Shown here: one piece after another, positions 1 to 15,232 of the stretch
Position numbering within the stretch: position 1 is the first letter of the stretch
Layout of the letters: the number at the start of each line of letters is the position of its first letter
Assembly: GCA_013178305.1 (NCBI GenBank)
Contig: JABLXB010000007.1
Span: forward strand, 1 to 64,000
Direction: 5' to 3'
Source of the DNA: Bacillota bacterium
GTDB taxonomy: Bacteria > Bacillota > Sulfobacillia > JABLXB01
DNA length: 64,000 nucleotides
Made by a program: the position numbers and the translations under genes
Notes under the pieces: generated by a model
What the model was told of the DNA's origin: nothing
Database searches by the model: none
What the model saw: only the letters and a program-made list of their open reading frames with translations

Positions 1-159
1 ATCACTTCCTTAACCTCCTGCATCCGCGTTCTGCCAAGTATGAGGATACAGGATTAGTGGTCGGGGTGGATCACTTTAAGACGAGCGTTTGCGGCATTAC
101 TGGATCACTTTTATTGTAACGAACGCACCATAACAGGCAGTGCCCGCTGCAGCCTCAAA
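1..159. other. Left edge, non-coding, with short direct repeats
   Basis: No gene is seen here. The 11-mer tggatcacttt occurs at 67-77 and again at 101-111 (34 bp apart), and a truncated copy (atcactt) opens the window at 1-7. Regularly spaced copies of a short motif are typical of IS21-family termini (compare the element at 3795-6365), so this could be the end of a second IS whose body lies left of the window. That is inference; no transposase is visible. Confidence 0.3.
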
Positions 160-2997
160 TCATCCTTGCCCGTCACTGCGAATCTGCCTAGACTTTACCA
201 AGCCTTTCTGTCTCATGAGGGTCTCGATGAATAAGTCACGGGTAATGTCGCCTTCAACGACCCTCACATAAAGTTCGCCCAAATCCTGCACAGTCATCAG
301 CTTATATGACTTACCAGGGGCCAACTGCGTATTAATATTAGCCGAGTTCTCTATGGCTAAACGGTGAAATCCCGGCCTTCCAAAAACAACGTAGGATGCC
401 GCATTATAGGCGGCTCCAGATCGGATTATCTCCGCACATTTGCTGTCTGAGATGTTGGTCTTCGACGCTGTAACCGATGCGACCAGGGTCCCTGCATCAA
501 TTGTCATGACAATGTCGGGCTCTCCTTGCCGCTGAGTCTCGATGCGTCTTGCCGGGAGGTTCAGGGGAGGAGCATTCAGGAGGTTGACCACGGCGGCCTC
601 TAGCGCTTTGGATTCCTCCTCATAGATGGCTCGCAACAATGTTGCGTCGTTCCCGCGTCTATTGAGTCGGTTAATCTGCGTATACTTGCTGCGTTCAAGC
701 GAATCCTGAATATCGTTGGTGTACGCTTCCTGAATGCGCTGGGCCAAAGAGGGATTAATGATGTTCTTGAAATCTGCTGGGGGCGTGTCGAGTATTCGAT
801 CCGGTGAGGCAAATCCGTTGTCAACGAGTCTCCGTACTACTGTTCGAGTCACTCCGCGCACGCCCAGCTTACGGAGAGCGATCCCTTCTTCGGGCACGCC
901 GTAGCGCAGTCTCTCACTCAATACGTAGAGTTGCTCCACGAAAGATGCACCGCAGTCCAACTGAAGTGCGATTCGGGCTATAACCTCGACTAACCACGAA
1001 GATCGCTCACTGATAGTCCGAATAGTCGCCGATAGAAAACGATTCCGTACGCCGTACGTATCCTCAATCTTGCTTGTCTCTATTCCGTGAATCCAATCGC
1101 GAAGAATGAGAAAGGCCTTCACCCGCCCTTGTGTTCGTTCGACGCTCTTGGTAGTATTGTTTGACCATGTCAGTAGCCCATTGCGATTAGGAGGGTCAAT
1201 CTCTTCCAGGCGTTGTATTATCATGGGGTCCGATTCCCGGGTAAGGTATATGTCGATGTCCCTGGCCACCTCTCTGGGATGCATGCACGGGAAAATGACT
1301 TCCCAAGGATCCCATCTGGCCGGGTCTATCTTCTCGACAGTCTCTCTGAGAACAACAAAAGTCTCCACTTGGACTCCGCTAACCCCACACAACCTGCCCA
1401 TCTTTGTCGCAGCGAGATCCGTTCCGTCACAACGTTCGATAAGCCCATTTTGAATGAGGAACTCGCAAGACCTCTTTATGGAGTCTTCGAGAGCCTGCCT
1501 AGTCGCCGGCCCCTTGTTCCAAGAAACAAAACCTGTGTAGGAAGCAAGAAGCAGGTTACTTATATCGACCTCATTCTTACACAACCCGCTTGCCAAGAGT
1601 CCCAGTATTATCTTCCTGTGGTCCTTGCCTTCGAGGGGTGGTCTCAGAGATTCGAACTGCCCCTTCACATATGTCTGCCAGTATTGAGACGCTTCGGCTG
1701 CGGAGTTGGCCACCAATATTGAGAGTCCTTCCTCTCCAAACCTTGTCCGACCGGCACGACCGGCCATGTTCTTGTATTCTGAAGTGGTGATGGGGGTTTC
1801 GAGAAGGCGGCCTTCGCTCTGTGAGTCCGGCTTAAGGGTATCTGGGATGACTACTATCGAGCTCGGGAGGTTCACTCCTACAGATAGAGTGCTAGTAGCA
1901 ACCATCACTCCGATCTGCCCTTGGGGGTCTCGAAAGGCCTTTTCAAGGGCGAGCCGTGTCTCCACGGCTAGGTCTGCAGTATGAAACGCCACACCACCGT
2001 TCAGGCATTCGTGCAGGGCGTTCTCGGAATTAGTGCTCTCGACGTCCCGCAGTTCTTGAATGATTCTTGTTGCCGGAGGTAGGCCGAGAGTCTTAGACAG
2101 ATACTGGGCCGTATCACGCGCTATAGGCCTCCACTTTCTGAAAATGAGCACGTGTTTGCCTTCTGAAACTGGCTTTCTGCAGATAATACTCAGACGCTCG
2201 AGAATCGATTGCTCCATTCTGGCTCTGGACGCCGCGCCGAAAGTGTTCTTAGGAATGGCGACCCCCGAAATTCCTTGGAGCACCTCGGTCCGTTCAATCC
2301 CTGTGATGGATTCTCGGATACGAAGGGTTCCGTCCGGTGATAGGACAGCCTCATGCAGCTCCAATGGCCTTGAACGAACGTCGCAATGAGTTGCGCCGAG
2401 CCACCTGTCCAATCCGTTTAGGTCACCCAAGACCGCCGACAAGCAGACGATCTGAATCGGCTCCCTGGCCTTCTCGTTTGCGGTTTTGATTTTGGTGAGA
2501 AGTATCTCTAACTCAGGTCCTCTTTCCGGGTCGTTGAGAGTCTGGATCTCATCAACGACAACTAACCCGCAATTGTTGACAACTGCCGGGTGCTGTGTCA
2601 TCAACACATTCATTTTCTCGAATACCACTACTGCAATATGAAAACGGCCATTTAGAATACTGCTGTCAAATTCTGTTCGGTCGTGGCTAGAAACAGCAAT
2701 TTCGAGTCCAAACGCCTCGTACTTCGACTTGAACTCTGCGTATCTCTCCTCTGCAAGTGCCTTCATCGGGACAAGGAAGAAGGTCCTCTTCCTTTTGTAG
2801 TATGCGTTGATTGCGGCCATTTCTCCCACGAACGTTTTGCCTGACGAGCTTGGGGCGGTAACGAGAAGACTGGCCCCATTCAGCAAGCCATACTCCAGGG
2901 CTTTCACTTGCACCTCTAGTAGAGAATCCCCCACCTCTGCTCGCCAGATGTTGACGACTTCGGGCAAGAATCCAAAGCGGTCAACCAATTGTTGCAT
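160..2997 (-). CDS. Ski2-like superfamily 2 helicase with nuclease-like C-terminal domain
   Basis: A 945-residue protein. Seen: Walker A APSSSGKT (about 48-55), Walker B-type DEIQ (149-152; the family usually has DExH), motif III-like LSAVLG, TSTLSVGVNLP (about 368-378) and motif VI GRAGR (413-417). This order is that of Ski2/Hel308-like DExH helicases, which unwind nucleic acid with ATP. The middle part (about 450-800) has helical and possibly HhH-like stretches. The last 120 residues read like a PD-(D/E)XK fold: PDIV at about 828-831 and ASK at 844-846, where E-x-K is expected, so the catalytic Glu seems lost. The start ATG at 2997 follows an AGAGGGG ribosome site. It stands alone in the island, with no recognisable partner upstream. 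A role in defence or in island maintenance is inference; the helicase call is firm, the nuclease-like tail is not. Confidence 0.85.
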   Translation of the reverse strand: MQQLVDRFGFLPEVVNIWRAEVGDSLLEVQVKALEYGLLNGASLLVTAPSSSGKTFVGEMAAINAYYKRKRTFFLVPMKALAEERYAEFKSKYEAFGLEIAVSSHDRTEFDSSILNGRFHIAVVVFEKMNVLMTQHPAVVNNCGLVVVDEIQTLNDPERGPELEILLTKIKTANEKAREPIQIVCLSAVLGDLNGLDRWLGATHCDVRSRPLELHEAVLSPDGTLRIRESITGIERTEVLQGISGVAIPKNTFGAASRARMEQSILERLSIICRKPVSEGKHVLIFRKWRPIARDTAQYLSKTLGLPPATRIIQELRDVESTNSENALHECLNGGVAFHTADLAVETRLALEKAFRDPQGQIGVMVATSTLSVGVNLPSSIVVIPDTLKPDSQSEGRLLETPITTSEYKNMAGRAGRTRFGEEGLSILVANSAAEASQYWQTYVKGQFESLRPPLEGKDHRKIILGLLASGLCKNEVDISNLLLASYTGFVSWNKGPATRQALEDSIKRSCEFLIQNGLIERCDGTDLAATKMGRLCGVSGVQVETFVVLRETVEKIDPARWDPWEVIFPCMHPREVARDIDIYLTRESDPMIIQRLEEIDPPNRNGLLTWSNNTTKSVERTQGRVKAFLILRDWIHGIETSKIEDTYGVRNRFLSATIRTISERSSWLVEVIARIALQLDCGASFVEQLYVLSERLRYGVPEEGIALRKLGVRGVTRTVVRRLVDNGFASPDRILDTPPADFKNIINPSLAQRIQEAYTNDIQDSLERSKYTQINRLNRRGNDATLLRAIYEEESKALEAAVVNLLNAPPLNLPARRIETQRQGEPDIVMTIDAGTLVASVTASKTNISDSKCAEIIRSGAAYNAASYVVFGRPGFHRLAIENSANINTQLAPGKSYKLMTVQDLGELYVRVVEGDITRDLFIETLMRQKGLVKSRQIRSDGQG

Positions 2998-3607
2998 GAG
3001 CTTGCCCCTCTCTGTTGGTTTTGGGATACCATATTAGACAACATCTCCCAAAGATCCTCCGCTGGACGCCGTTGTGTCGGTTCTTCTGGGCTAAGGTGAC
3101 AGCCACTCACTGCCATCCTTCCTCCGATCAGGTGAGACATTAGGAGTGCATATTGATCCCAAGTCCCGCAATCCTTGTTGGCGCTCCCACTTTCCATACG
3201 CCACAACATCGTGACAAGAGACTCTGAGGATTAATATTGTCGCTGACAATGCGTTGTTCGGGGACATTTGCTTTAAGTCTTTCTGTCGAGGCTGCCGTGT
3301 GCCACAACGCTCGTCTCCATGTAGGGAGTTCGAGGGAATCAATGGAATTCATGTCGGTTGATGGAGGAGTCGTTCGACAAGAACGGCACCGTGTGGTGGC
3401 GTGGTCCTGCAGTCCGCCGCTCGATATGGAATCAGCTGCCATTAGGTCGGCAGGACGGTCTACGGGCTCGATTCCGTGTGGGGCTGTGGGGTTTGGGTTC
3501 GGGCGGCAAACAAGGCTGTGCTGGTGGGGATACTGGACGTTCCTGAGACCACCCCCGACACCCCGCAGAAGCGGATTCAACCACAGGATGCACGATGAGT
3601 CTTCAGA
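2998..3607. other. Intergenic stretch between helicase and TOPRIM remnant
   Basis: About 600 bases with several short open frames on both strands, none with a convincing start, length or domain. It probably holds decayed island DNA. The one piece that reads like coding sequence is listed separately (3446-3598). Confidence 0.4.
3446..3598 (+). pseudogene. Possible 3' remnant of an unidentified gene
   Basis: After an in-frame TAG at 3443, a 50-codon frame runs to TGA at 3596. Its codons look like those of real genes here and the peptide contains NKAVLVGILDVPETT. It has no proper start. An upstream frame beginning at 3361 (MEESFDKNGTVWW) could be the 5' part separated by a frameshift. The family is not recognised. 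It may equally be chance. Confidence 0.22.
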
Positions 3608-3794
3608 TCACCGCCTCCACATCTTCCCAGTCAGGGCGTCGTTCCAGTCCTTATACTCCTTAGGTGGACTCATGTCAATCACGCCGTACCCGAGATTGGT
3701 TAAGTTCAACTCAAACTTCGCTGAGTTGTTGCGCCCTGGGTCGTCGTTGTCGAGGGCAAGAGCTACTGTCCGCACATCACCGTGGTCATCCAGG
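3608..3794 (-). pseudogene. C-terminal fragment of DUF3991-TOPRIM protein (split by IS21)
   Basis: Reading the minus strand from the left IS junction to TGA at 3608-3610 gives a TOPRIM tail: ALDNDDPGR carries the DxD metal motif, and PPKEYKDWNDAL is the PPxxKDWND signature seen at the end of Toprim_2 proteins. Joined to the fragment at 6366-7089 after removing the IS and one 5-bp duplicate, the frame is continuous (906 bp, 301 residues). The fragment has no start of its own and is presumably not expressed. Confidence 0.85.
3790..3794. repeat. Target-site duplication, left copy
   Basis: CCAGG immediately outside the left tip of the IS21 element. It matches 6366-6370, and removing one copy together with the element restores the split reading frame. 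Confidence 0.9.
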
Positions 3795-3802
3795 TGTCAC
3801 AC

Positions 3803-3878
3803 GTCACGTAATTCCCCACCCGTGATCGGCGCCCGCGTCACATAATTCCCCACCCCCGTGTCACGTAATTCCCCACCC
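3803..3878. repeat. Left-end transposase-binding repeats (x3)
   Basis: Three near-identical 19-mers of the type gtcacgtaattccccaccc lie at 3803-3821, 3837-3855 (one mismatch, cataatt) and 3860-3878. They match, in inverted orientation, the three repeats at the right end. In IS21 such arrays bind the transposase. Confidence 0.85.
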
Positions 3879-3948
3879 AAAAGGTGGCACTGTGTTCTTC
3901 TGTAGAACACCGCCTCCCGTACATCTTGTTGGTCTTGGAGGTGTCGGG

Positions 3949-5508
3949 GTGGCACGGAGGTCATGGAACTTGAACCAAATCATCGAGATTCTGGAGCACT
4001 GGCAAGCGGGTCGGAGCGTCAAGTCGATCGCTGAGAGCCTTGGGGTGGATCGCAAGACGGTCCGAAAGTACGTCAACGGTGTGCTCAGCGCAGGCGTCAC
4101 CCGGGAAAGCCATCTCGAGCGCGAGGAATGGGTCGCGTTGCTCAAGCAGCGGTTTTCCGAATTGGACCACGCTCAGCGTTCGCCGACGTATTTGCTTTTG
4201 GAGCCGCACAAGGATGAGATACGCGACGCGCTGGGCAAGAACAGAGTGATCACAGTCTGGAAGAGGCAGGTGGTACCCACGCTGCCCGGGCTGAGCCTCA
4301 GTTCGTTTCGACGCTGGCGGGATGTCATGCCCGAGGTCATAACGGGAAACCAGGTCACGGTATGGAGGCCGGATGTGCCGCCGGGAGAAGAGTCCCAGAT
4401 AGATTTCGGCTATCTGGGCCCCTGGCAGGATCCCGCGACGAACAAGCAGTTGAGGGTATGGGCCTTCATCATGGTATTGAGCTACAGCAGGCATATGTTC
4501 GTGGAGCCGGTGTTTCGGCTGGACAGTCCTACCTGGCTTCATTGCCACATAGAGGCGTTCGAGTTTTTTGGCCGGGCGCCGAGGAGGCTGGTGCTCGACA
4601 ACCTGAAGGACGGCGTGGTCAAGCCTGACATATACGATCCCGAGATCAATCTTGAGTACGCGCGCCTGGCCAGGCACTACGGCACGTTGGTAGACCCTTG
4701 TCGAGCCGGTCATCCAAAAGACAAGCCGCGGGTCGAGAGACAGGTTAGTTACGTTCGGGAAAGCATGTGGACTGGGATGCGGTTCGGCAACGTCGCGCAC
4801 ATGCGGCAACACAGCCGGCGCTGGTGTGTTGAGGACGCCGGCGCCCGCATTCACGGGACAACACGTTGGAGACCGTTCGAGTACTATGAGCAGAACGAGA
4901 AGCAGCATATGCTCCCGTTGCCCGCCGAGCGCTTCGAGGTGTTCGAGTTGACCACAGCAAAAGTGGCCCCTGACTCTCACTGCCAGGTGATGAGGGCCCG
5001 GTACTCAGTGCCGTTCAAGCTCCTGGGCCGGACACTCTCGGTACGCGTGGGCGAGAAGACGGTTGAATTCTACCACGGTGAGGACCTGGTGAAGACGCAT
5101 ATTAGGCGGTTTGACCGGGGAACCAGTACGGACATGACGGACCTGCCCGAGGAGAAGACAGCATTTTTTCTGCACACGCCCCAGGTATGCCTGCATAAAG
5201 CCCGGCAAATCGGGACCCCGGTTCACGATGTGGTGCTCGCACTCCTGAACCAGGGGGCGCTCATCCACCTGAGGCAGGCCCAGGGGATACTGCAGCTCGA
5301 ACAGAAGCATGGAGCCAGAAGGCTCAACACCGCCTGCAAGATGGCGCTCTCCTGTGACGATCCCCACTACCGCACTGTCAAGCGAATCCTCGATAACCGG
5401 ATGGACATGTCCTTTACGGAGGAACCCACGGACCGCAGTGCGCGGATCGGGGCGTACCTCCACGGTTCGAACGCGTTCGCGTTCGACTTACCGCAGAAGG
5501 GGGTATGA
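3949..5508 (+). CDS. istA: IS21-family transposase IstA
   Basis: DDE transposase of about 519 residues. An N-terminal helix-turn-helix (SVKSIAESLGVDRKTVRKYV) recognises the ends. An rve-type catalytic core follows with the three acidic residues in QIDFGYLG (D), LVLDNLKDG (D) and RVERQVSYV (E), then a C-terminal basic region. The frame is open from 3892. GTG at 3949 is preceded by GGAGG at 3937-3941; TTG at 3970, with GGAGG at 3956-3960, is also credible and gives the classical N-terminus. IstB follows 3 bp after the stop, the usual coupled arrangement. Confidence 0.95.
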   Translation: MARRSWNLNQIIEILEHWQAGRSVKSIAESLGVDRKTVRKYVNGVLSAGVTRESHLEREEWVALLKQRFSELDHAQRSPTYLLLEPHKDEIRDALGKNRVITVWKRQVVPTLPGLSLSSFRRWRDVMPEVITGNQVTVWRPDVPPGEESQIDFGYLGPWQDPATNKQLRVWAFIMVLSYSRHMFVEPVFRLDSPTWLHCHIEAFEFFGRAPRRLVLDNLKDGVVKPDIYDPEINLEYARLARHYGTLVDPCRAGHPKDKPRVERQVSYVRESMWTGMRFGNVAHMRQHSRRWCVEDAGARIHGTTRWRPFEYYEQNEKQHMLPLPAERFEVFELTTAKVAPDSHCQVMRARYSVPFKLLGRTLSVRVGEKTVEFYHGEDLVKTHIRRFDRGTSTDMTDLPEEKTAFFLHTPQVCLHKARQIGTPVHDVVLALLNQGALIHLRQAQGILQLEQKHGARRLNTACKMALSCDDPHYRTVKRILDNRMDMSFTEEPTDRSARIGAYLHGSNAFAFDLPQKGV

Positions 5509-5511
5509 ATC

Positions 5512-6279
5512 GTGCACACACATCATCTTGCCACCAAGTTAAAGGCCCTCAAGCTCGGCGGGATGCTCGATTCGCTCGAAACAAGGCTTGAGCAGGCGCA
5601 ACATGACAACCATGGTTACCTGGTTTTCCTGGAATGGCTCCTCGAAGACGAGATACAGCGCAGGAACCAGAAGGCTCTCGCCATGAGAGTGAAGAAGGCG
5701 CGGTTCGATGAGGTGAGAAGCTTGGCCGAGTTCGATTTCAGATACAATCCCAAGATCCCCGCGGAGATGATCCGTGATCTCGCCACGTGTGGCTTTGTGG
5801 AGCGCGCCGAGTCCGTGGTGATCTGCGGGCCGGTGGGCGTCGGCAAGAGCCACGTGGCCCAAGCGATTGGTCATGCCGCTTGCCAGAGGGGATACAGCGT
5901 GCGCTACGTGAAGACAAGCCGTATGCTGGGAGACCTCGCCGGCGGCCGAATCGCCGGCAACTGGGAACAGCGACTGCACGCCTATGTCTCACCTGACCTG
6001 CTCATCCTGGACGACTTCGGGCTCAGGGATTTCGACGCCAGGAACTCCGAGGACCTGTTCGAACTGGTATGCGAAAGGCATCTTAAGCGTTCGACGGTCG
6101 TAGTATCCAACCGCCCTACGCAAGAGTGGTACGCGCTGTTTGCCAACCCCGTGCTCGCCGAGGGCGCGCTCGACCGCCTCATCAACAGCTCACACTACGT
6201 CCTGATGGACGGGCGGAGCTACCGCGCCCGCGGCCGGCCCGATAGGACCCAGGGAGGTGAACCGGATGGACTAGCGTAA
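5512..6279 (+). CDS. istB: IS21-family helper ATPase IstB
   Basis: A 255-residue DnaC-like AAA+ ATPase that chooses the target and activates IstA. Seen: Walker A GPVGVGKSH (about residue 105), Walker B LLILDDFG and the sensor-type VVVSNRP. The GTG start at 5512 follows a G-rich site just after the istA stop. Length and motifs are complete. Confidence 0.95.
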   Translation: MHTHHLATKLKALKLGGMLDSLETRLEQAQHDNHGYLVFLEWLLEDEIQRRNQKALAMRVKKARFDEVRSLAEFDFRYNPKIPAEMIRDLATCGFVERAESVVICGPVGVGKSHVAQAIGHAACQRGYSVRYVKTSRMLGDLAGGRIAGNWEQRLHAYVSPDLLILDDFGLRDFDARNSEDLFELVCERHLKRSTVVVSNRPTQEWYALFANPVLAEGALDRLINSSHYVLMDGRSYRARGRPDRTQGGEPDGLA

Positions 6280-6290
6280 TTACAGGAAAC

Positions 6291-6357
6291 GGGTGAGGAA
6301 TTCCCTGACACACAGGGTGGGGAATTCCTTGACGCGAGCGGTGAGGAATTACGTGAC
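6291..6357. repeat. Right-end transposase-binding repeats (x3)
   Basis: Three copies of gggtgaggaattccctgac-type 19-mers at 6291-6309, 6315-6333 and 6339-6357. They are the reverse complement of the left-end set, with small differences. Confidence 0.85.
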
Positions 6358-6365
6358 GCGCGACA

Positions 6366-6370
6366 CCAGG
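6366..6370. repeat. Target-site duplication, right copy
   Basis: CCAGG immediately outside the right tip of the IS21 element, pairing with 3790-3794. Confidence 0.9.
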
Positions 6371-7089
6371 AACCGCGTCAGAGTCTGCCACCTTAGACCG
6401 TTCAAGCTCAGGAGATGGCCTGCCCTAACGAGTGGTCGAAGCACGGCCAACGACATGGCATCGATCGGGCTCTCTGTCACGGTTGTCAATGTGGAAGGGC
6501 TCTTTGGTGCCCACAGCCAACCATACGAGGAGTCGCTTCCAGCAGCCATACCTTTGAAGGGCCTGTTGGGGTTGCTCCCGCACAGGACAGCCCCCCGCAT
6601 TTGCCCGTTTGAGTCGAGGCACGGAAAGACCGCATTGCACTTGTTGTCTGAGTACAAGAGACCGTCTCTCATGACCTCGGCAACAAGTCGTATGGGGAGG
6701 CCCCTATGCTGAACAAGGTGCTTTAGAACCCGCCTGGAATGGGCAGAAGGGTGCAGTGGCTGGAAACAATGCTTCGGCGCGGAAGTCTCCGTGTGGGGAG
6801 CTGGTGACGAAGTGGCACCGAAAGGGGAATCGTTTCGGAGCAACTCGTCCACGGCCTGTGCGAATCCCATGCCGAAAAACTGCATCAGGAAGTCGATCGC
6901 GTTGCCACCAATGCCTACCGAATGCCAGTACCATGTGTTGCCAGTGATAATGAGGCCTCCATATCCTGCGACCCTGAACTGCTTACCCTCAGGAATGAGA
7001 TTGAAGCCACGTTCGGTCAGATAATCCACCAAGTCAATCCGGCGGGCAAGCTGCACCTGCTGATGCCCATACAAGCCCGTTCCCTCCAT
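6366..7089 (-). pseudogene. N-terminal fragment of DUF3991-TOPRIM protein (split by IS21)
   Basis: About 240 residues before the insertion point. The first 75 match the DUF3991 pattern (DLVDYLTERGF; WYWHSVGIGGNAIDFLM). A Toprim_2 part follows, with the LLYSDNKCNAVFPCLD stretch, GSDSSYGW and the catalytic-Glu segment TESPIDAMS; the DxD part is on the other side of the IS (3608-3794). Such primase-like proteins are typical of Firmicutes conjugative and mobilisable elements. Beyond the junction the frame runs a few residues into the IS and stops. ATG at 7089 has a weak ribosome site; TTG at about 7075 with GGAGGGA upstream may be the real start. The truncated product would lack the metal-binding half. 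Confidence 0.88.
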
Positions 7090-7100
7090 CCCGAGGCAGG

Positions 7101-7134
7101 TGTCCTTTTGGCCTACTTTCCTATTGTCCTTTTG
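7101..7134. repeat. Direct repeats upstream of the TOPRIM gene
   Basis: The 10-mer tgtccttttg occurs at 7101-7110 and 7125-7134, 24 bp apart, with a further partial copy (ttgtcctgg) right after. They lie just upstream of the minus-strand TOPRIM gene, where an operator would sit. Regulatory use is a guess. Confidence 0.25.
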
Positions 7135-7198
7135 TCCTGGTATCCTAGGGTAGGACGTATATCTAAATACAGATCCGTAAGACCGCCTGTTAACAAAA

Positions 7199-7783
7199 TC
7201 ACTGAGCTCCGGTGGTCAACCGGGCCCTCCCCTCCAGGTACTCACAGAACTCAAGAACGGCCAAGGCAAACATGTCCGTGTAGGCATCCGGTATCCAGAC
7301 CGCCGATTGGGCGAGTCCGGCGACCAGTGCGGCTTCGGTGATTGTAGACATCGGGAGGCCGAGATCAAGTGATAGGTTCAGCAGCTCGCCGTGCACCCTC
7401 TCGAACAGCGACGCCTTGAGGTAGGTGGGGCTTCCTTTCAGGGAGCGGAAGCCTCCGTACGACTGGTTCACGAACAGCGGTTCCCGGGCTACGTCTACGC
7501 TCAAGTAGACAGACTCCCGGGCGCGCCTGATCTGCTCGATGGCAGGAACCCGGCGCACAACCCTGAGCCCGCAGCGAGTTGCGTAACGGCATGCAGATGA
7601 GACTTTGCGAAGACTGGAGCTACTGCGAACCAGGTAGAACAGCGTACTCAAGATGTGGCCCGAGACCTGGTTTAGAGTAACCGGGATCTGGTAGGGCATG
7701 TTGAGATCCTTCGCCCTTCTGCGGTCGTCAGAGTCGCCGGCTGCAACAACGTCCTCGAGCGATTCCCCTCCGAACAGCGGCAC
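7199..7783 (-). CDS. Hypothetical protein of the mobile region
   Basis: 194 residues, family not recognised. It has a basic N-terminal half and a C-terminal half with YLKASLFERVHGELLNLSLD followed by STITEAALVAGLAQS, which resembles a short ribbon-helix-helix or other small DNA-binding fold but is too weak to call. The frame begins at GTG 7783, inside the 3' end of the upstream gene (56-bp overlap), which suggests coupled translation. It sits between that gene and the split TOPRIM gene on the same strand. Confidence 0.6.
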   Translation of the reverse strand: MPLFGGESLEDVVAAGDSDDRRRAKDLNMPYQIPVTLNQVSGHILSTLFYLVRSSSSLRKVSSACRYATRCGLRVVRRVPAIEQIRRARESVYLSVDVAREPLFVNQSYGGFRSLKGSPTYLKASLFERVHGELLNLSLDLGLPMSTITEAALVAGLAQSAVWIPDAYTDMFALAVLEFCEYLEGRARLTTGAQ

Positions 7784-8153
7784 AGAATTCCAGCGTGAGA
7801 TGCGGCCGTCGGGCGTTAGCCCCGTTGTTCGGGCCTTTCCGGTTGATTAGCCGTACTCGATATTCATCCTGGAACTTGTCGGCTCCAATAGCACCACAGA
7901 CTGCAGGCATTCTACTCACTAAGCCCATCCGATCGTGAACGTCTCCGGCCCTGATCGTCACCTCGTGTTCACCCCGTAAACGAGCAGGTTCAATGTACTC
8001 TCGGAAGACGAATCTGCGGATTTCGTCTGCAAGCACGGCGCAGCCCTCCTTAAGTGTTGCCGCATCAGTGCGGGGAAGCGCAATGTCCACTGGATCTTCT
8101 CTGGATGCACTAACGGTTTCCTGCCAGTTGTGCAGAGGTACAGAGGTTTGCAA
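7728..8153 (-). CDS. Small conserved-looking protein of unknown function
   Basis: 141 residues. The core reads IRRFVFREYIEPARLRGEHE, then VTIRAGDVHDRMGLVSRMPA and VCGAIGADKFQDEYRVRLI. The pattern looks like a compact nucleic-acid-linked domain I have seen in short bacterial and archaeal proteins near restriction-type genes, but I cannot name it reliably. The last 18 residues are basic and out of character, lying in the overlap with the next gene. The longest start is TTG at 8153; GTG about 20 codons in is an alternative. Confidence 0.6.
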   Translation of the reverse strand: MQTSVPLHNWQETVSASREDPVDIALPRTDAATLKEGCAVLADEIRRFVFREYIEPARLRGEHEVTIRAGDVHDRMGLVSRMPAVCGAIGADKFQDEYRVRLINRKGPNNGANARRPHLTLEFCAAVRRGIARGRCCSRRL

Positions 8154-8509
8154 GATGCCACCGTGCTGAACTGTAGATTGCAGCGCGCCAGAGGGAAGCG
8201 GGTAACAAGACGGAGGAGGTTTTCAAGATTGGCGTCAATAATCGTACACCGAAGTCTTCTTTCCAGCCCCGCGGAGCGGAGGCCCCGAAGGGGCCGACGC
8301 GAACCCCTCTGTCCTCTGCACCCTACTACTTGACTTCGGCCGTATGAAGAGGTGTGAAGCGCCTTTCTTCTACGTGACGAAACCCTTGACGCATGGGGGG
8401 TCTGTCTACGAGTTCACAAATGTAGAATGCTCACAAGGATAGGCGGCGAATTTACAGAAATGACAGAAAGGGTGGCATCGGGACGCCGAGCGGTTGGGGG
8501 GTTTCCGAG
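8154..8509. other. Divergent intergenic region
   Basis: This 356-bp gap separates the minus-strand cassette from the large NTPase gene. It contains a compact hairpin, ggccccgaaggggcc (8281-8295). A TTGACG lies at about 8390, without a convincing -10 at proper spacing. A G-run just before 8510 acts as the ribosome site of the next gene. Nothing else is seen. Confidence 0.4.
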
Positions 8510-11500
8510 ATGTCTAAGGTCAATCAGATACAGAATGGTCTGAAGGGTCTGGGGGACGCGGCGTTTCAGAAACTGGCCGACGCCTATCTCTACAAGAAGG
8601 GCTATGGGTTAGTCAACCCTTTGGGGGCCGTAGCGGGTGCCGACAAAACGCGGGATGGGACGCCTGACACCTATGTACCGCTGCCTAACGGGAAGTATGT
8701 GTTCGCTGAATACACGACTCAACAGAGCCAATTGTTCCCGAAACTCTTGAATGACCTGCGCAAGTGTTTTGACGAGGCTAGGACAGGAATTGCGGTTAAG
8801 AAGGTTCAAGAGGTGGTCTTCTGTCATACGTCAGTCTTGAAGCCAGGTGAGGAGGATGTGCTCAGGCAAGAATGCCAGAAGCATGGTGTCAATCTTTCCA
8901 TCTTTGGCATTGGACCCATCTCCCACGATCTCTACGAGAAATACCCCGAAATAGCCAAGGACTTCTTAGGCATTGAGGTCGATACGGGGCAGGTAATCAG
9001 CCCCGAAGTGTTTGTCGCGGCGTACAATCGCCAATTGATGGCCGCCCCCCTGAATACTCCGTTTCATTTCAGGGAGGAGGAGTTGAAACATGCATTGCGT
9101 GCACTAGAGGAGAGAGAGATGGTCCTTGTATCTGGTCGACCGGGAGTCGGGAAATCAAGGCTGGCGCTGGAGGTCTGTCATCGCTTTGAAGCGGAGCATC
9201 CTGAATACAAGGTCCGCTGCATCTTCAATAGGTATGTCGATCTGTTTCAGGATCTCCGTGTTCATTTCTCTGAGCCGGGGCACTACCTCATCTTTGCTGA
9301 CGATGCCAATCGGGTGAACCGCTTTGAGTACGTTCTTCAACTCCTACACGACCGGGGCGAAGGCAGAGTGGTTAAGATTATTGCCACCGTGCGTGACTAT
9401 GCTGTTGATAGAGTCTGGGAAATGGCTCGACCGTACGGAAAGCCAATTTCGGTCGAGGTGCCGCCCCTCAAGGATGAGCAGATTAAGGAGATCATCATGA
9501 AGGAGTACGGCATAAGTAACCTACTCTATCTTGACAGGATCGCTGACATCTCGGGGGGCAACCCTCGCCTCGCCATCATGGCTGCGCAGGTAGCCAATCG
9601 AGAGAATACACTCCGAAGCATTGTCAATGTATCGGCCTTGTACGATGAGTACTATAGATCTGTCAGGCAAGACCTTACGGATCTGGACGACAAGAACCTC
9701 CTCAGAGTGGCTGGCATTGTGGTCTTCTTCGGGGCGGTAGACCGCACTGACGAAAAAAGGACGAAATCCATTGAAGCAGTATTCGGAGTGCCTACTGAAG
9801 CCTTTTGGGGGCTAGCGAGGCGACTCCACGATCTAGAGATACTTGATATGTATGAATCCGAAGTGGTTCGGGTCTCCGATCAGATCCTTGCCACCTACCT
9901 TTTTAATCTTTGTTTCTTCCGTGATAAAGTGCTCGACTTCTCGATGCTCCTGGCGCACTTCTTCCCAACTCTCAGGGATCAGCTGGTCCACGCCCTGTAT
10001 CCTGTCCTAGACGCATTTTTGAGCGAACAATTGATGGAGCAGTTACGCTCACAGGTTGGCGATTTCTGGCAGGAGCTCAAGGACCGAGAAGACATGAAGG
10101 GCCTGCTCAGCCTCATGGATGTGTTCTGGTTTGTCAAGAGCACCGAGACCCTAGCATGGATCAAGGACTATGTGTCAAAGCTGGAATCCGTGCCATCATG
10201 TCCTCCTGGGCTAGAGATGAAAGCAGACCCATGTGTTCCATCCCCCTCTGTTCTGAGTATCTTGAGTCACTTCTGGAATTCCCCAGACGATGCGGAAGTG
10301 AAAATCGCAGTAGAGCTTGTCCTGGACTATTTGGCAAAGCGACCCAACGAAGTGCAGCGAGTTCTACATGTTCTGGCAATCGATTTCGGGTTCAGACACA
10401 CCTCTTTCATGCGTAGATTCTATATGCAAGAGACAGTAGTGCGTGTTCTGTGGGAGCGGACAAAAGACGGCACGGATGATAGGTTTTTGAAGGTTTTCAT
10501 TGCCGTAGCACAGCAATATCTCCAGACTCAGTTCGAGAGCCTTGAATCGAAGAGAGACAACGCCGTGAGGATAATCAGGTTTCCACTCAGCCTGACTCCT
10601 GATGTTCGAAGACTACGCGCTTTGCTGTGGAATCGTCTCTTTCGATTATGGAGGACACCATCGGCGCGTGGGACTGTACTTGACTTCCTTCTCAACTACG
10701 AGAAGTCACTGCATGAATCTGAGGCCCTAGGGGTCATAACGCACGACGCGCAAGAGGTCATTCGTTTCATTGAAGAAAACCTGGATCCCAACGTCTATCG
10801 TCATTGTGTAGTGGCCCAGGGGTTTCTCCACTTGTTGGACAGAATGGGGATTCCTTTCGACGCGGGTCTGCGCTATAGGTTTAGAAATGCCGTATACAAT
10901 CTCGCAGAAATTCTGACACAGGATGAGTTTGTTATGATGAGATCTGGAATCGACTATGAGGAGTGCCAGCGGTTAAGAAGAAGCCAGATTGAACAGTGCT
11001 TTGCCAACTATGGTTTGACTGAGTATCGGCAATTCTTCAAACATTGCCTTGAGATCTTGAAGTGGCTGGACCAAGGTACGGAGGAATATCGGTTTCGGTA
11101 TTGGGTAACTGAAGTGCTTCTCGTTCTGAGTGAGCGCAAGCCTGCGCTCTACGTTGAAGTACTTGACGATTACCTGTCTCTCGGAGAACCACTCGCGATT
11201 GACCCCACACTGCCGGTAAGCAGGCTCGTAGAGGTTTCTGGGGCATGTCAGGCCTTTGTAATCTTAAGCCGATGTTGCCATCGCTACACTTCAAGAAGGA
11301 GATGGCTGTTTGCCTTATGCATATCAGTTCCTATTGGAGACATTACCGTCAGGCATCTCAGGCTGCTGTATTCTCTTTATCGGAGATCTAGACGGGAAGA
11401 AATGCCACAACGTATGGACTTCCTGACGAAGTATCAGAATCTTGATCCGAAGGTTGTTCTTAAGGTTACTGAGATTGTATTGGCGAAAACTGCGAAGGAT

Positions 11501-12292
11501 TCAAAGAACGCCTTTGCTCTCTGCTCGCTGTTCAATCCGCACACGGAAATCGGCAAGAGTCTAGTAGAGGTATTTGGCGGGAACCCAGCCCTACTCAAGC
11601 GGTGTTACTTGGCTGTGCAAGCAGTTGATGAACATTCTGATTACAACGGAGAGGTCTTCGCCAAGATCTTGGATATGGACCGCACGTTCATTGTTGACTA
11701 CATAGACTGGATGTATGGGCGAAAAGAACATCTTGGGCGTTACGATGACCCCCGCGATTACACCTTTATTTGGGAGCGCGAGGATTTCCAAGAATTGGTG
11801 GAACGAGCAGTTGAACGTATCTACGCGAATGAGAGAAATCGGCGGTGTCTTTGGTCAGCCTACCTAGTAACGTTTTTCCGCACCAGGGAAGACAAGCCTC
11901 CGGACGCGAAGGTACAGGAGAGGCAAGATTGGTGCCTGAGTAGACTAATCGAAAGCAGATCCGGAGACGCTGATTTCATGCAATTCGTTTTCAGTTTGAT
12001 TGCCGAGTTTCCGGCTGAGCGGCGACTCCAGTTTCTCGTGCTATTCCTCGAACGGAACAAGGACTTCGAAGTCTTCAGAAGACTGCCACTTGAGCCGAGT
12101 CTCTGGACTTGGCGGGGAAGCGAAATTCCGGTACTCAAAGGCCGAGTCGAGTACTACGAGGCCATTCTGCCTCACTTGAATACAATAGAGCTTCTCACTC
12201 ACAGGGCGCACGTACAGCATTACGTAGAAGCGCTTCGCCGAAGAATAGAGTGCGAAGAGAAGAGAGATTTCGTCGAAGGACGACCGACATAA
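8510..12292 (+). CDS. STAND-type NTPase with N-terminal PD-(D/E)XK-like nuclease domain (Avs-like)
   Basis: 1,260 residues in three parts. Residues 1-150 read like a restriction-endonuclease fold: GTPDTYV (Asp53) and, after a beta strand, FAEYTTQ (Glu67), with Thr where the usual Lys would be. Residues 185-440 are a P-loop NTPase: Walker A GRPGVGKS (209-216), Walker B YLIFADD (259-265), sensor IIATVRDY and the ISGGNPRLA motif of the STAND/AP-ATPase class. The remaining 800 residues are helical and repeat-like without clear motifs, as expected for a ligand-sensing superhelix. No membrane segment is seen. This is the plan of Avs/AVAST antiviral proteins, which bind a phage protein, oligomerise and cut DNA, but at 1,260 residues it is shorter than the best-known Avs and cannot be placed in a type. 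It stands alone next to the integrase, and its codon use is more AT-rich than the chromosome. Function is inferred from architecture and place. Confidence 0.82.
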   Translation: MSKVNQIQNGLKGLGDAAFQKLADAYLYKKGYGLVNPLGAVAGADKTRDGTPDTYVPLPNGKYVFAEYTTQQSQLFPKLLNDLRKCFDEARTGIAVKKVQEVVFCHTSVLKPGEEDVLRQECQKHGVNLSIFGIGPISHDLYEKYPEIAKDFLGIEVDTGQVISPEVFVAAYNRQLMAAPLNTPFHFREEELKHALRALEEREMVLVSGRPGVGKSRLALEVCHRFEAEHPEYKVRCIFNRYVDLFQDLRVHFSEPGHYLIFADDANRVNRFEYVLQLLHDRGEGRVVKIIATVRDYAVDRVWEMARPYGKPISVEVPPLKDEQIKEIIMKEYGISNLLYLDRIADISGGNPRLAIMAAQVANRENTLRSIVNVSALYDEYYRSVRQDLTDLDDKNLLRVAGIVVFFGAVDRTDEKRTKSIEAVFGVPTEAFWGLARRLHDLEILDMYESEVVRVSDQILATYLFNLCFFRDKVLDFSMLLAHFFPTLRDQLVHALYPVLDAFLSEQLMEQLRSQVGDFWQELKDREDMKGLLSLMDVFWFVKSTETLAWIKDYVSKLESVPSCPPGLEMKADPCVPSPSVLSILSHFWNSPDDAEVKIAVELVLDYLAKRPNEVQRVLHVLAIDFGFRHTSFMRRFYMQETVVRVLWERTKDGTDDRFLKVFIAVAQQYLQTQFESLESKRDNAVRIIRFPLSLTPDVRRLRALLWNRLFRLWRTPSARGTVLDFLLNYEKSLHESEALGVITHDAQEVIRFIEENLDPNVYRHCVVAQGFLHLLDRMGIPFDAGLRYRFRNAVYNLAEILTQDEFVMMRSGIDYEECQRLRRSQIEQCFANYGLTEYRQFFKHCLEILKWLDQGTEEYRFRYWVTEVLLVLSERKPALYVEVLDDYLSLGEPLAIDPTLPVSRLVEVSGACQAFVILSRCCHRYTSRRRWLFALCISVPIGDITVRHLRLLYSLYRRSRREEMPQRMDFLTKYQNLDPKVVLKVTEIVLAKTAKDSKNAFALCSLFNPHTEIGKSLVEVFGGNPALLKRCYLAVQAVDEHSDYNGEVFAKILDMDRTFIVDYIDWMYGRKEHLGRYDDPRDYTFIWEREDFQELVERAVERIYANERNRRCLWSAYLVTFFRTREDKPPDAKVQERQDWCLSRLIESRSGDADFMQFVFSLIAEFPAERRLQFLVLFLERNKDFEVFRRLPLEPSLWTWRGSEIPVLKGRVEYYEAILPHLNTIELLTHRAHVQHYVEALRRRIECEEKRDFVEGRPT

Positions 12293-12355
12293 CAGTGGCT
12301 GTAAGGCGCGTCACCCAGGACTTCACGATTAGGAAGAAGCGGGGGGTCCCCGCTC

Positions 12356-13285
12356 TCACAATCCCCTCATCCTACATCCTTCCTGCTTGACCATTATCAG
12401 CGGGCTCGCCTTACTATGCTCCTTCCTCACATCCCCCTCCGTCAAGTGCACGTACCTCTTCGTCATCTCCAGCGTGCTATGCCCCATAAGCCTCTGTAGC
12501 GCCAGCGCATTGCCTCCCGCCCTCAGGAACTGCGTCGCAAACGTGTGCCTCAGCGCGTATGGGTGGAACTTGACCCCTAGCTCCTTCGCATACTTCTCCA
12601 GCCTGTCGCCCCAGGTATCGTTTCTGAGCGGAGTCCCCTCGGCGCTGCAGAACACAGGAACGCTTGAATCCCAGCTTGGGTGCCTGCTTGACATGAGCGT
12701 CCTGACCGCTTGAGCCGTGATGGGGGAGAGTGGCAAGGTCCGCGATACTCCCGTCTTGGCGACTCCTGGGGGTATTCTGGCTTCAAGCGCCCTGAGGTTG
12801 AAGTCGTCCGGCTTGAGCGAGAAGGCTTCCCCAGGCCTGGCCCCGGTATCCAGCACAAAGCACAGCAAAGCGTAGTCACGAAGCCCGGCAAAGCTTGTAC
12901 GATCAGGCAGAGCGATCAAGCGTCTCACCGTATCAATGTCCAAGCACGTCATGCGGCCATCGTCCTTGCGCTTCTTGAAGCCGTCCAGGGAGTTGTCGGT
13001 GAATACTCCTTCCTTGACGCACCAGTCAAAGAACTGGCGGAGGTAGTTCCGGCGGATGTTGTAGGTGGCTGGCTTGATCCTCTCGCCCATGAACGAGTAG
13101 ACGGACTCGAGGAGCTCACCAGTCCAAGCGTCAGGGTGGCGCCTGAAGAACAGGCCGATGACGTCGCGGTGACCCTTGATAGTGATGTCGCGCAAGCCTT
13201 GAGCCTGCTTGAACCACAGGTACTGCTGCATCGCCTCTTGCCAGGTGGCCGCTGCAGCCTTCCTCAGCCTCAACACTCTCGCCAT
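12356..13285 (-). CDS. Tyrosine recombinase / island integrase
   Basis: A 309-residue Xer-like phage integrase. An N-terminal SAM-like DNA-binding domain (about 1-100) precedes the catalytic domain: GARPGEA (first Arg), a Lys in the beta-hairpin VAKTGVSRTLPL, HPYALRHTFA (H-x-x-R), LMGHSTLEMTKRYVHL (His and nucleophilic Tyr). The catalytic set is complete. The start ATG at 13285 has AAGGAGG nine bases upstream; a longer frame to 13423 runs into the tRNA and is rejected. The gene starts 138 bp from the 3' end of tRNA-Leu and reads away from it, so it is probably the integrase that inserted the region to its left. Confidence 0.93.
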   Translation of the reverse strand: MARVLRLRKAAAATWQEAMQQYLWFKQAQGLRDITIKGHRDVIGLFFRRHPDAWTGELLESVYSFMGERIKPATYNIRRNYLRQFFDWCVKEGVFTDNSLDGFKKRKDDGRMTCLDIDTVRRLIALPDRTSFAGLRDYALLCFVLDTGARPGEAFSLKPDDFNLRALEARIPPGVAKTGVSRTLPLSPITAQAVRTLMSSRHPSWDSSVPVFCSAEGTPLRNDTWGDRLEKYAKELGVKFHPYALRHTFATQFLRAGGNALALQRLMGHSTLEMTKRYVHLTEGDVRKEHSKASPLIMVKQEGCRMRGL

Positions 13286-13422
13286 AATTAAACGCCTCCT
13301 TACCTGGCTAAACAGTGAAGGAGGCTCATCCCAGACCCAAACGTCCCCGCCGCTTGCCCCACGAAAACCAAAACCGGGGTTCCGGCCGTCATCCTGACCG
13401 AAAACCCCGTTAATCTTCGACA

Positions 13423-13470
13423 TGGTGTCGGGAGCGGGACTTGAACCCGCACGGTGTTCACCATACGCCC
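13423..13470. other. Probable attachment site (att) at the tRNA-Leu 3' end
   Basis: Tyrosine recombinases of islands usually recombine in the T-arm to 3'-end part of a tRNA, leaving the gene whole on one side and a duplicate of its 3' end at the far junction. Integrase and tRNA are adjacent here. No second copy of the tRNA 3' end is seen in 1-13,400, so the other att lies left of the window. The exact core is unknown. Confidence 0.45.
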
Positions 13471-13507
13471 CTCAAACGTACGCGTCTGCCAATTCCGCCA
13501 TCCCGAC
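13423..13507 (-). tRNA. tRNA-Leu (anticodon GAG)
   Basis: 85 nt with a cloverleaf by eye. The acceptor GTCGGGA pairs with TCCCGAC, followed by discriminator A and an encoded CCA. The D arm TGGCGGAATTGGCAGACGC is typical of tRNA-Leu. The anticodon stem TACGT/GCGTA encloses loop TTGAGGG, giving GAG. There is a long variable arm (class II), and the T loop GTTCAAGTC is present. It reads CUC/CUU codons. Its 3' end faces the integrase gene, so it is the likely attachment site of the island. Confidence 0.95.
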
Positions 13508-13649: not shown

Positions 13650-14387
13650 TTACGCTCCGGCCGCCCTGCGCCGCTTGCCGAGATACGCGTCCTGCACCTC
13701 GGGGTTGGCCAGCATCTCGCGGCCCGTTCCCGACATCACGACGCGGCCGGTCTGCATGACGTATGCCCGCGCGGCGAGTCGCAATGCCTGGTTGGCGTTC
13801 TGTTCAACCATGAGCACCGTGACGCCCTGGTGGTTGACGCGCCTGATCTGGCGGAATATCTCCTGCACGAGCACGGGGGCCAGCCCGAGCGACGGTTCGT
13901 CGAGGAGCAGGAGCTTCGGGCGGGACATAAGCCCGCGGCTGATGGAGAGCATCTGCTGCTCGCCGCCCGACAGCGTGCTCGCGACCTGGGTTAGCCGCTC
14001 CTTCATGCGCGGGAAGATCTGGTACACCCACTCGAGGTCCGCCTGGATCTCTTTCTGGTCCCTGCGGAGGTACGCGCCCATGAGTAAGTTCTCGCGCACC
14101 GTAAGAGTGCCGAATATGCGCCTGCCCTCGGGTACGAGCGCGATGCCGGCCTCGACTACCTGGTGGGATGCGCGCGGAACGGGTTTCCCCTGGAACGTGA
14201 TTGACCCCTTCGCGGGTTTGACCAGTCCCGCGATGGTGTTCAGCAGCGTGCTCTTGCCCGCGCCGTTGGCGCCGACGATACTGACGATCTCGCCCTCATT
14301 GACCTCCAGGGAGACGTCCTTGAGCGCCTGGATGGCGCCGTAATTCACGTGTAGGCCTTCGATCTTGAGCATTGCCTTGCCCGCCAT
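13650..14387 (-). CDS. livF: Branched-chain amino acid-type ABC transporter ATPase LivF
   Basis: A 245-residue ABC ATPase. Walker A GANGAGKST (about 37-45), signature LSGGEQQML, Walker B LLLLDEPSLGLAP and the H-loop region are present, and its length is typical of LivF. It energises uptake together with LivG. The start ATG overlaps the livG stop by one base (TAATG). It is the last gene of the livJHMGF operon; substrates of such systems include Leu/Ile/Val but also amides, urea and aromatic acids. Confidence 0.95.
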   Translation of the reverse strand: MAGKAMLKIEGLHVNYGAIQALKDVSLEVNEGEIVSIVGANGAGKSTLLNTIAGLVKPAKGSITFQGKPVPRASHQVVEAGIALVPEGRRIFGTLTVRENLLMGAYLRRDQKEIQADLEWVYQIFPRMKERLTQVASTLSGGEQQMLSISRGLMSRPKLLLLDEPSLGLAPVLVQEIFRQIRRVNHQGVTVLMVEQNANQALRLAARAYVMQTGRVVMSGTGREMLANPEVQDAYLGKRRRAAGA

Positions 14388-15232
14388 TAGCGCCCCACCT
14401 TCCCGGATGAGCCGTTCGAGCCCCCGCCCGCCGCACCCGCAGCAGCAGCGGCGTCTTCCTCGTCATAGTCCTCGACCTCTTCGCCGAGGTAGGCGGTGAT
14501 GACCTCCTGGTTCGCCTGGATCTCGGCCGGGTTGCCGTGGGCGATCGTGGCGCCGAAATTCAATACGAAGATGCGTTCGCAGATACCCATCACGAGCTCC
14601 ATGTGATGCTCGATGACCAGTATCGTCAGATCGAACCTCTTGCGGAGGCCCTGGATGAGGTCCATGAGATCCAGCGATTCGTCGGGATTCATACCGGCCG
14701 CCGGCTCGTCGAGCAGCAGTAGCTTCGGCGACAACGCCAGTGCCCGGGCGATTTCGAGCTTACGCTGCAACCCGTAAGGGAGGCTGCCGGCGTGCGAATT
14801 CCAGTGGCCGCCCAGCCCCACGATTTCGAGGTACTCCATAGCCTTGTCGCGGATCTCGCGCTCCTGCTTCAGGAAGGCCGGAGTCCGGATCAACGCCGAG
14901 GCGAAGTTGTATTTGTAGCCGAGCTGCACGGCGGTCGTCACGTTCTGGATCGCCGGCAGGCCCTTGAATAGCCTGAGATTCTGGAAGGTACGGGCGATGC
15001 CGAGCCGCCCGATCTCGTGGGGGGGGAACCCTGTGATGTCCTTGCCTTCCAGCCGAACACGGCCCTCGGTGGGTTTGTATATCCCCGTAACGAGGTTGAA
15101 CACGGTGGTCTTGCCCGCGCCGTTCGGCCCGATGAGGCCCACCAGTTCACCCTTCTGCATCTGGAGGCTGAAATCGCTGACGGCGGTGAGGCCGCCGAAT
15201 TTCTTCGTAAGGTGTTCGATCTCGAACAACAT
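14387..15232 (-). CDS. livG: Branched-chain amino acid-type ABC transporter ATPase LivG
   Basis: 281 residues. Walker A GPNGAGKTT, signature LPYGLQRKLEIA (LSGG replaced by LPYG, usual for LivG) and Walker B LLLLDEPAAGMNP are seen. The ATG at 15232 follows GGGAGGT eight bases upstream and overlaps the livM stop by one base. A longer in-frame extension to 15460 lies inside livM and is rejected. The C-terminal 35 residues are acidic, then Ala/Gly-rich, longer than usual and probably disordered. Confidence 0.95.
   Translation of the reverse strand: MLFEIEHLTKKFGGLTAVSDFSLQMQKGELVGLIGPNGAGKTTVFNLVTGIYKPTEGRVRLEGKDITGFPPHEIGRLGIARTFQNLRLFKGLPAIQNVTTAVQLGYKYNFASALIRTPAFLKQEREIRDKAMEYLEIVGLGGHWNSHAGSLPYGLQRKLEIARALALSPKLLLLDEPAAGMNPDESLDLMDLIQGLRKRFDLTILVIEHHMELVMGICERIFVLNFGATIAHGNPAEIQANQEVITAYLGEEVEDYDEEDAAAAAGAAGGGSNGSSGKVGR

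What the first reader, a model, noticed from the sequence alone, without database searches (positions are those of the whole stretch)
8510..12292. Stand-alone Avs-like STAND NTPase with nuclease-like head
The sequence shows a PD-(D/E)XK-like N-terminal domain (D53, E67 in AEYTTQ), a complete STAND NTPase core (GRPGVGKS, YLIFADD, SGGNPRLA) and 800 helical residues without known motifs. This plan is known from Avs/AVAST antiviral sensors. It sits beside an island integrase and differs in composition from the chromosome. Its smaller size and the Thr in place of the nuclease Lys suggest a distinct subgroup; the C-terminal sensor could recognise an unknown phage protein.
Basis: partly seen in the sequence, partly recalled or inferred. 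Interest (0 to 1): 0.75.

Follow-up and report, generated by a model that had tools for sequence, protein, structure and literature searches.

The report
Avs-like phage sensor, shifted nuclease site
This gene, carried on a mobile island in a bacterial genome, most likely encodes a single-protein alarm against viruses, built like the known Avs immune proteins but belonging to a family missing from the defence catalogue searched, whose DNA-cutting head seems to have moved its key lysine to a neighbouring helix.

Summary
Window 8510-12292 (+) is an intact 1260-aa ORF with 50% GC, against 63% in the chromosome. It lies beside a tyrosine integrase that abuts tRNA-Leu(GAG).

AlphaFold2 models built on about 30 homologues are confident. 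The head (1-160) has the PD-(D/E)XK restriction-enzyme fold; its best PDB matches are EcoT38I and Avs4. The best PDB matches of the rest (162-1260) are Avs4 and Avs3, with Avs5 sixth. I recovered about 40 homologues from some ten phyla including archaea, plus full-length copies on Leptospira plasmids. The head and NTPase are conserved (42-44% identity); the helical C-terminus is not (23-27%), as expected of effector, switch and variable sensor.

One correction: E67 is not the family-wide catalytic signature. It is E in 23/23 sequences outside one Bacillota clade but M or A in 7/8 inside it. D53, K78 and D82 are invariant (31/31) and recur in two other protein architectures. The likely site is PD...ExT...K-x3-D, with the lysine moved to the next helix.

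No Avs model matched any of 29 members. Homologues sit beside defence genes more often than control regions do, but not always. Verdict: a new variant of the Avs kind; antiviral function is inferred, not shown.

The parts
8510..12292 (+). Whole gene: 1260-aa stand-alone Avs-like STAND protein
   Evidence: about 40 homologues
8510..8989 (+). Residues 1-160: PD-(D/E)XK-fold head, the presumed nuclease effector
   Evidence: AF2 pLDDT 86, topology a-b-b-b-a-b-a-b; Foldseek best matches EcoT38I and Avs4
8666..8668 (+). D53, motif II aspartate in GTPD
   Evidence: invariant 31/31
8708..8716 (+). E67-Y-T69: motif III strand, with Thr where the canonical Lys would be
   Evidence: E67 in 23/23 outside one Bacillota clade, M or A in 7/8 inside; T69 in 27/31
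8741..8755 (+). K78 and D82, i and i+4 on the helix after motif III: candidate relocated lysine and acid
   Evidence: invariant 31/31; helix 75-86; K-x3-D also in G179, L059, L060
9062..9949 (+). Residues 185-480: STAND NTPase with lid and winged-helix region
9134..9157 (+). Walker A GRPGVGKS (209-216)
9284..9304 (+). Walker B YLIFADD (259-265)
9386..9403 (+). TVRDYA (293-298), sensor arginine R295
   Evidence: R295 invariant 29/29
9551..9574 (+). SGGNPRLA (348-355), GxP-type STAND motif
9950..12289 (+). Residues 481-1260: helical-repeat C-terminus, the presumed ligand sensor
   Evidence: about 45 helices over 162-1260; 23-27% mean pairwise identity against 42-44% in head and NTPase
12356..13423 (-). 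Tyrosine integrase of the island (the listed ATG lies at the tRNA end; the true start is probably internal)
   Evidence: PF00589 E 1.4e-31
13423..13507 (-). tRNA-Leu(GAG), likely integration site of the island
   Evidence: the second island end is not in the window

Best explanation
It is a single-gene, Avs-like antiviral STAND sensor acquired on a tRNA-Leu-integrated island. The C-terminal helical solenoid (481-1260) would bind a conserved phage protein. Binding would let the NTPase (185-480) exchange nucleotide and oligomerise. Oligomerisation would bring the PD-(D/E)XK-fold heads (1-160) together, and these would cut DNA and stop infection at the cell's cost. The head's site is probably D53 + E67 + K78, with the lysine moved from the strand (now T69) to the following helix and D82 as an extra or alternative acid. 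Shown here: intact gene, predicted folds, motif conservation, modular variability, spread across phyla and defence-gene neighbours. Inferred: DNA cleavage, oligomerisation, phage-protein recognition and the role of K78/D82.
For: Head: confident AF2 model, best matches to restriction enzymes and Avs4. Rest: top PDB matches Avs4, Avs3 and, sixth, EfAvs5. Profile comparison with Avs4 aligns residues 141-346 (E 3e-11), and with canonical Avs4 only, residues 4-331 colinearly (E 3e-7). Conserved head and switch with variable C-terminus. Spread across some ten phyla, with P0001 outside the Bacillota clade. Leptospira plasmid copies. Defence neighbours above control. D53, K78 and D82 invariant and kept in a NACHT-like protein beside Gabija and in short Paenibacillus proteins. 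Published precedents for lysine or acid relocation in this fold (PMC551604, PMC1189080). Avs1-4 kill by nuclease activity after sensing phage terminase or portal (PMC12931631).
Against: No sequence-level match of the head to any solved nuclease or to Avs4's head on its own. No Avs model matches. Global TM-scores of the long model are low (about 0.2), so the Avs match rests on E-value and probability. E67 is lost in seven Bacillota members, so nuclease activity may not be universal. Many of the loci sit in ordinary chromosomal surroundings.
Confidence: 0.72

Rival explanations
1. It is an Avs-like antiviral STAND protein, but the head is a catalytically dead nuclease fold that serves as an oligomerisation, DNA-binding or partner-recruiting domain rather than as the killer.
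For: T69 stands where the catalytic Lys belongs, and E67 is replaced by M or A in 7 of 8 Bacillota members while the rest of the head persists. Glutamine replaces it in G179, L059 and L060. No sequence link to a known nuclease.
Against: D53, K78 and D82 are invariant in 31/31, more strictly than a structural scaffold needs, and persist in other architectures; E67 is kept 23/23 in the rest of the family. Lysine and acid relocation are documented in this fold.
Confidence: 0.2
2. It is a STAND regulator or restriction-like protein that limits plasmids or competing mobile elements, not phages; the island uses it for its own maintenance or to exclude rivals.
For: It lies on an integrase island, and relatives lie near the partition genes of Leptospira plasmids.
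Against: Many homologues are chromosomal without mobility genes noticed nearby, and neighbours include antiphage systems. Avs4 and Avs3 are the closest folds.
Confidence: 0.12
3. It is a housekeeping signalling ATPase (for example a STAND transcription regulator) with no defence role.
For: Several homologues lie among housekeeping genes (L024, L028, L034, L052), and generic P-loop models give the only Pfam and PADLOC hits.
Against: Patchy occurrence (at most 6 of 398 genomes of the phylum), incongruent tree, several disrupted copies and a nuclease-fold head instead of a regulator's output domain.
Confidence: 0.05

Closest known systems
Avs4 (AVAST type 4; structure 8dgf with phage portal)
   Same: Single protein with N-terminal PD-(D/E)XK-fold head, STAND NTPase and long helical C-terminus. 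Best PDB match for residues 162-1260 and third-best for the head. Colinear profile alignment over residues 4-331. An Avs4-like split gene is the next gene downstream in L025 and L026.
   Different: About 310 residues shorter. Head has (E/Q)xT plus K-x3-D instead of the FE...GIE...QAK seen in Avs4. No hit to the Avs4 model; head-only profiles do not match; C-termini do not align by sequence.
Avs3 (structure 8dgc with terminase)
   Same: Tripartite STAND plan; third-ranked PDB match of the STAND and C-terminal part.
   Different: Much larger chain (2028 residues); no sequence match.
Avs5 (SIR2-STAND; EfAvs5 9jap)
   Same: STAND NTPase with a helical repeat C-terminus (PMC12931631 assigns nSTAND3 to Avs5).
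   Different: Avs5 has a SIR2 NADase head, not a nuclease fold; the nSTAND3 hit here is weak.
COG4636 nucleases (PD-EXX-K, PMC551604)
   Same: Glutamate kept on the strand while the lysine moved to an adjacent helix.
   Different: Not a STAND protein; here the spacing is E67 to K78, T69 is conserved, and an invariant D82 is added.
Cfr10I/NgoMIV-type restriction enzymes (PD-XXK-E)
   Same: A relocated acid can serve the active site (its place on the helix after motif III is from my own knowledge), as proposed for D82.
   Different: There the lysine stays on the strand; here the helix would supply both.

Membership tests
STAND NTPases | Walker A, Walker B with hhhhD(D/E), sensor Arg and GxP-type motif before a winged-helix region | tested here: met
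   Invariant or near-invariant in 29 homologues; fold matches ORC/RuvB/Avs AAA-STAND cores
nSTAND3 (PF20720) | Specific match to the Pfam model | tested here: inconclusive
   31 bits over the first half only; the model matched frames in 249/249 genomes, many at 28-31 bits
Avs/AVAST, general plan | Tripartite effector, STAND and long helical sensor in one protein, best structural match to solved Avs proteins | tested here: met
Avs4 | Match to the curated Avs4 sequence model along its length | tested here: not met
   No hit at E 1 for P0001 or at 1e-3 for 29 members; only the region up to the NTPase aligns by profile
Avs1, Avs2, Avs3, Avs5 | Match to their curated models | tested here: not met
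Avs/AVAST, function | Phage protection triggered by direct recognition of a phage protein | not testable with these tools
   needs an experiment
PD-(D/E)XK nuclease superfamily | a-b-b-b-a-b core fold | tested here: met
   (predicted structure)
PD-(D/E)XK nuclease superfamily | Canonical D...(D/E)xK motif | tested here: not met
   Lys position is T69, conserved in 27/31; invariant Lys is K78 on the next helix. Relocated-Lys variants of the superfamily are known
PD-(D/E)XK nuclease superfamily | Acidic residues and Lys clustered in space | not testable with these tools
Integrative genomic island | Integrase next to a tRNA, with att repeats at both ends | tested here: inconclusive
   Integrase abuts tRNA-Leu; the far end lies beyond the contig start, no second att copy in the window

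The most novel reading that the evidence does not exclude
A separate, uncatalogued Avs type (beyond types 1-5) that senses a phage protein not known as an Avs trigger and kills with a PD...ExT...K-x3-D nuclease in which the lysine, and in one clade the second acid too, has moved to the helix after motif III; the same head module is reused by NACHT-like proteins and short stand-alone proteins.
Probability: 0.45. Interest if true: 0.65.

Novelty: new variant of a known kind. Interest (0 to 1): 0.52.

Why it matters
If confirmed, it adds a widely but sparsely distributed type to the Avs immune receptors, present from cyanobacteria and archaea to Leptospira plasmids, with a head whose active-site arrangement hides it from motif searches. 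It gives a concrete set of residues (D53, E67, K78, D82) and a natural comparison (Bacillota members without E67) for asking whether Avs-type heads can work with a rearranged active site. Its variable C-terminus points to a trigger still to be found.

Tried and rejected
Filing it under nSTAND3: rejected as proof, because at similar score levels the Pfam model matches frames in all 249 genomes. Filing it as Avs4: rejected, since the Avs4 model does not match and head and C-terminus do not align by sequence on their own. Taking E67 as the family-wide catalytic residue: rejected. Sequence-only search of solved structures with P0001, A4 and A5 found only P-loop or chance hits. Phage records and viral contigs held no relative (the viral scan used only two C-terminal peptide patterns, so it is weak). 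The search for the second island end failed in the window; copies of the tRNA 3' end elsewhere in the genome are a second tRNA-Leu and two decayed tRNA remnants, not a clear attachment site. Literature searches for a later Avs type found none in the open library, which does not exclude one in closed journals.

Full report
What is there. Window 8510-12292 (+) is one intact ORF of 1260 aa, single-copy in its genome. It is the gene next to a tyrosine integrase (12356-13423, -; PF00589 E 1.4e-31) whose reading frame runs into the 3' end of tRNA-Leu(GAG) (13423-13507, -). GC is 50.4% in the ORF and 54.5% over 1-13422, against 63.0% to the right of the tRNA; third-position GC is 57% against 79-87% in six chromosomal genes. 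The left end of the island is beyond the contig start, so its borders are not fully defined.

Relatives. A first search found full-length relatives at about 25% identity on Leptospira plasmids and none in phage records. A profile scan of 85,000 genomes gave 40 loci: cyanobacteria (49-63% identity over residues 1-453), Methanosaeta, Ignavibacteriales, Nitrosospira, Trichlorobacter, Chloroflexota, Chlorobiota, Bacillota, Bacteroidia, Sulfurimonas and others. Within the host's own phylum at most 6 of 398 genomes had any match. In a tree of 29 proteins the eight Bacillota members form one well-supported clade, and the window protein falls outside it, among cyanobacterial, archaeal, Chloroflexota and proteobacterial sequences. 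The contig G314:C5 has the same length (97,641) and gene content as the Bacillus nakamurai contig of L057, so the searched phylum includes Bacillus and the host is probably a member of Bacillota that acquired the gene from elsewhere; this step is inference. Copies interrupted by frameshifts or stops occur in several genomes, as is common for costly defence genes.

Architecture. Residues 1-185 fold with mean pLDDT 86 into a-b-b-b-a-b-a-b. Foldseek against the PDB returns EcoT38I first (E 8e-4), its apo form second, Avs4 third (E 3.1e-3, prob 1.00, TM 0.55 over 178 columns), and VRR-NUC, EcoO109I and Card1 among the next ten: the PD-(D/E)XK fold. Residues 162-1260 fold with mean pLDDT 87 and match Avs4 (1.7e-7), Avs3 (5e-6) and, sixth, EfAvs5 (5.2e-5), besides exportins (solenoid) and ORC/RuvB (NTPase). 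Global TM-scores are low (0.2), expected for long bent solenoids but a real caveat. Sequence profiles do not match any solved chain beyond the P-loop.

The switch. GRPGVGKS, YLIFADD, TVRDYA and GGNPRLA are conserved in all or nearly all homologues. The Pfam nSTAND3 match (31 bits, residues 189-266) should not be leaned on: the same model rings in 249 of 249 genomes, many frames scoring 28-31 bits.

The head. The alignment of 31 heads refines this. F19, Q20, G39, P52, D53, K78 and D82 are invariant. E67 is E in 23/23 outside the Bacillota clade but M or A in 7/8 inside it. T69 is T in 27/31. K78 and D82 are one helical turn apart on the helix directly after motif III. The same GTPD...(E/Q)xT...K-x3-D constellation occurs in a 1093-aa protein with a NACHT-like NTPase (my reading of its sequence) beside clear GajA and GajB genes (L018) and in short Paenibacillus proteins (L059, L060), in both with Q for E. 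In this fold the catalytic lysine is known to relocate to a neighbouring helix in COG4636 (PD-EXX-K), and the acid in Cfr10I/NgoMIV (PD-XXK-E) (PMC551604 and PMC1189080). The simplest reading is a relocated lysine (K78) with D53 and E67, and D82 as an additional acid that could stand in where E67 is lost.

The presumed sensor. Mean pairwise identity is 44% in the head, 42% in the NTPase, 37% in the lid/winged-helix region and 23-27% in the C-terminal 780 residues; within a closer subset the values are 63, 62, 56 and 39-44%. A conserved effector and switch with a fast-changing helical C-terminus fits ligand sensing but does not prove it.

Neighbours. Hand-picked neighbours proved to be SIR2-HerA (L054), type III restriction with a DrmD-like helicase (L053), AbiL (L047), type I restriction (L031, L050), Vsr plus an ATPase hit by HEC-04 (L048), a cytosine methylase (L026), a PDC-M04 candidate (L049) and a split Avs4-like gene immediately downstream (L025, L026). 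For a fairer test, 106 ORFs within 6 kb of 16 homologues were compared with 121 ORFs from 12-kb control stretches of the same 16 contigs: 149 against 21 PADLOC models matched at E 1e-20. Models are not genes (one methylase rings many models; the SspA/DndA hits are probably ordinary cysteine desulfurases), and by locus about 6 of 16 have clear defence neighbours while the others show none. In the window itself the nearest defence candidate is a Hel308/HamB-like helicase at 160-2997.

Comparison with Avs. Five Avs4 or Avs4-like proteins were collected with the PADLOC Avs4 model. Their profile aligns to ours over residues 141-346 (E 3e-11); with the three canonical Avs4 proteins the alignment runs colinearly over residues 4-331, head included (E 3e-7), driven mainly by the NTPase, since the head alone gives nothing. 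Avs4 heads keep an FE...GIE...QAK pattern, ours do not. No member of 29 matches any Avs model. So it works like an Avs protein, with Avs4 the nearest in plan, but it is not a member of Avs1-5 as catalogued. Published work states that Avs1-4 kill through nuclease effectors after sensing terminase, portal or another phage protein (PMC12931631).

Verdict. Novelty: new variant of a known kind. Antiviral activity, DNA cleavage and the trigger are untested.

Noticed in passing
L040:7603-10745, L038:7428-10129 and 13956-14960, also L033, L035, L037 (Okeania genomes): Directly upstream of the homologous gene lie tandem arrays of truncated gene starts (upstream region plus codons 1-30 or 1-55; period 217 bp with about 14 copies in L040, 284 bp in L038); in L038 three copies of the gene's 3' end follow it. 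Origin and role unexplained.
   Followed up: partly
window 160-2997 (-): 945-aa Hel308-like helicase with HHH motif; also hits HamB and PDC-M23B defence models (E about 1e-35), and its C-terminus carries GEPDIV...ASK, which looks like another nuclease half-motif. It lies at the contig edge, so any partner gene is missing.
   Followed up: partly
window 3789-6371: IS21-family element (transposase 3892-5508, IstB 5512-6279) with inverted ends 3789-3820/6340-6371 inserted in the island; one end overlaps the edge of the primase-like ORF 6349-7089, which may be disrupted.
   Followed up: partly
G000:C5:22383, G000:C5:31394, G000:C1:647584 and window 13423: The 3' end of tRNA-Leu(GAG) plus nearby sequence recurs four times in this genome: two full tRNAs and two decayed remnants, suggesting repeated integration or duplication at this tRNA.
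   Followed up: partly
L018:7060-10341 (-): 1093-aa protein with the same head module (GTPD...FQYTT...K-x3-D) but a NACHT-like NTPase, directly beside Gabija GajA/GajB; no PADLOC model matches it.
   Followed up: partly
L059:10007-10630, L060:9998-10834: Short Paenibacillus proteins (207 and 278 aa) consisting mostly of the head module, with QxT in place of ExT; partners unknown.
   Followed up: no
L010:12881-16675 (Leptospira plasmid pLiSL2): A second protein of 1264 aa follows the homologue directly; it shares only a weak GGN-type motif and may be another STAND-like sensor.
   Followed up: no
L025:13871-19055, L026:13873-19045: Two overlapping ORFs together cover an Avs4/PDC-M54A-like protein, apparently split in both Hydrococcus and Nostoc at the same place.
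   Followed up: no
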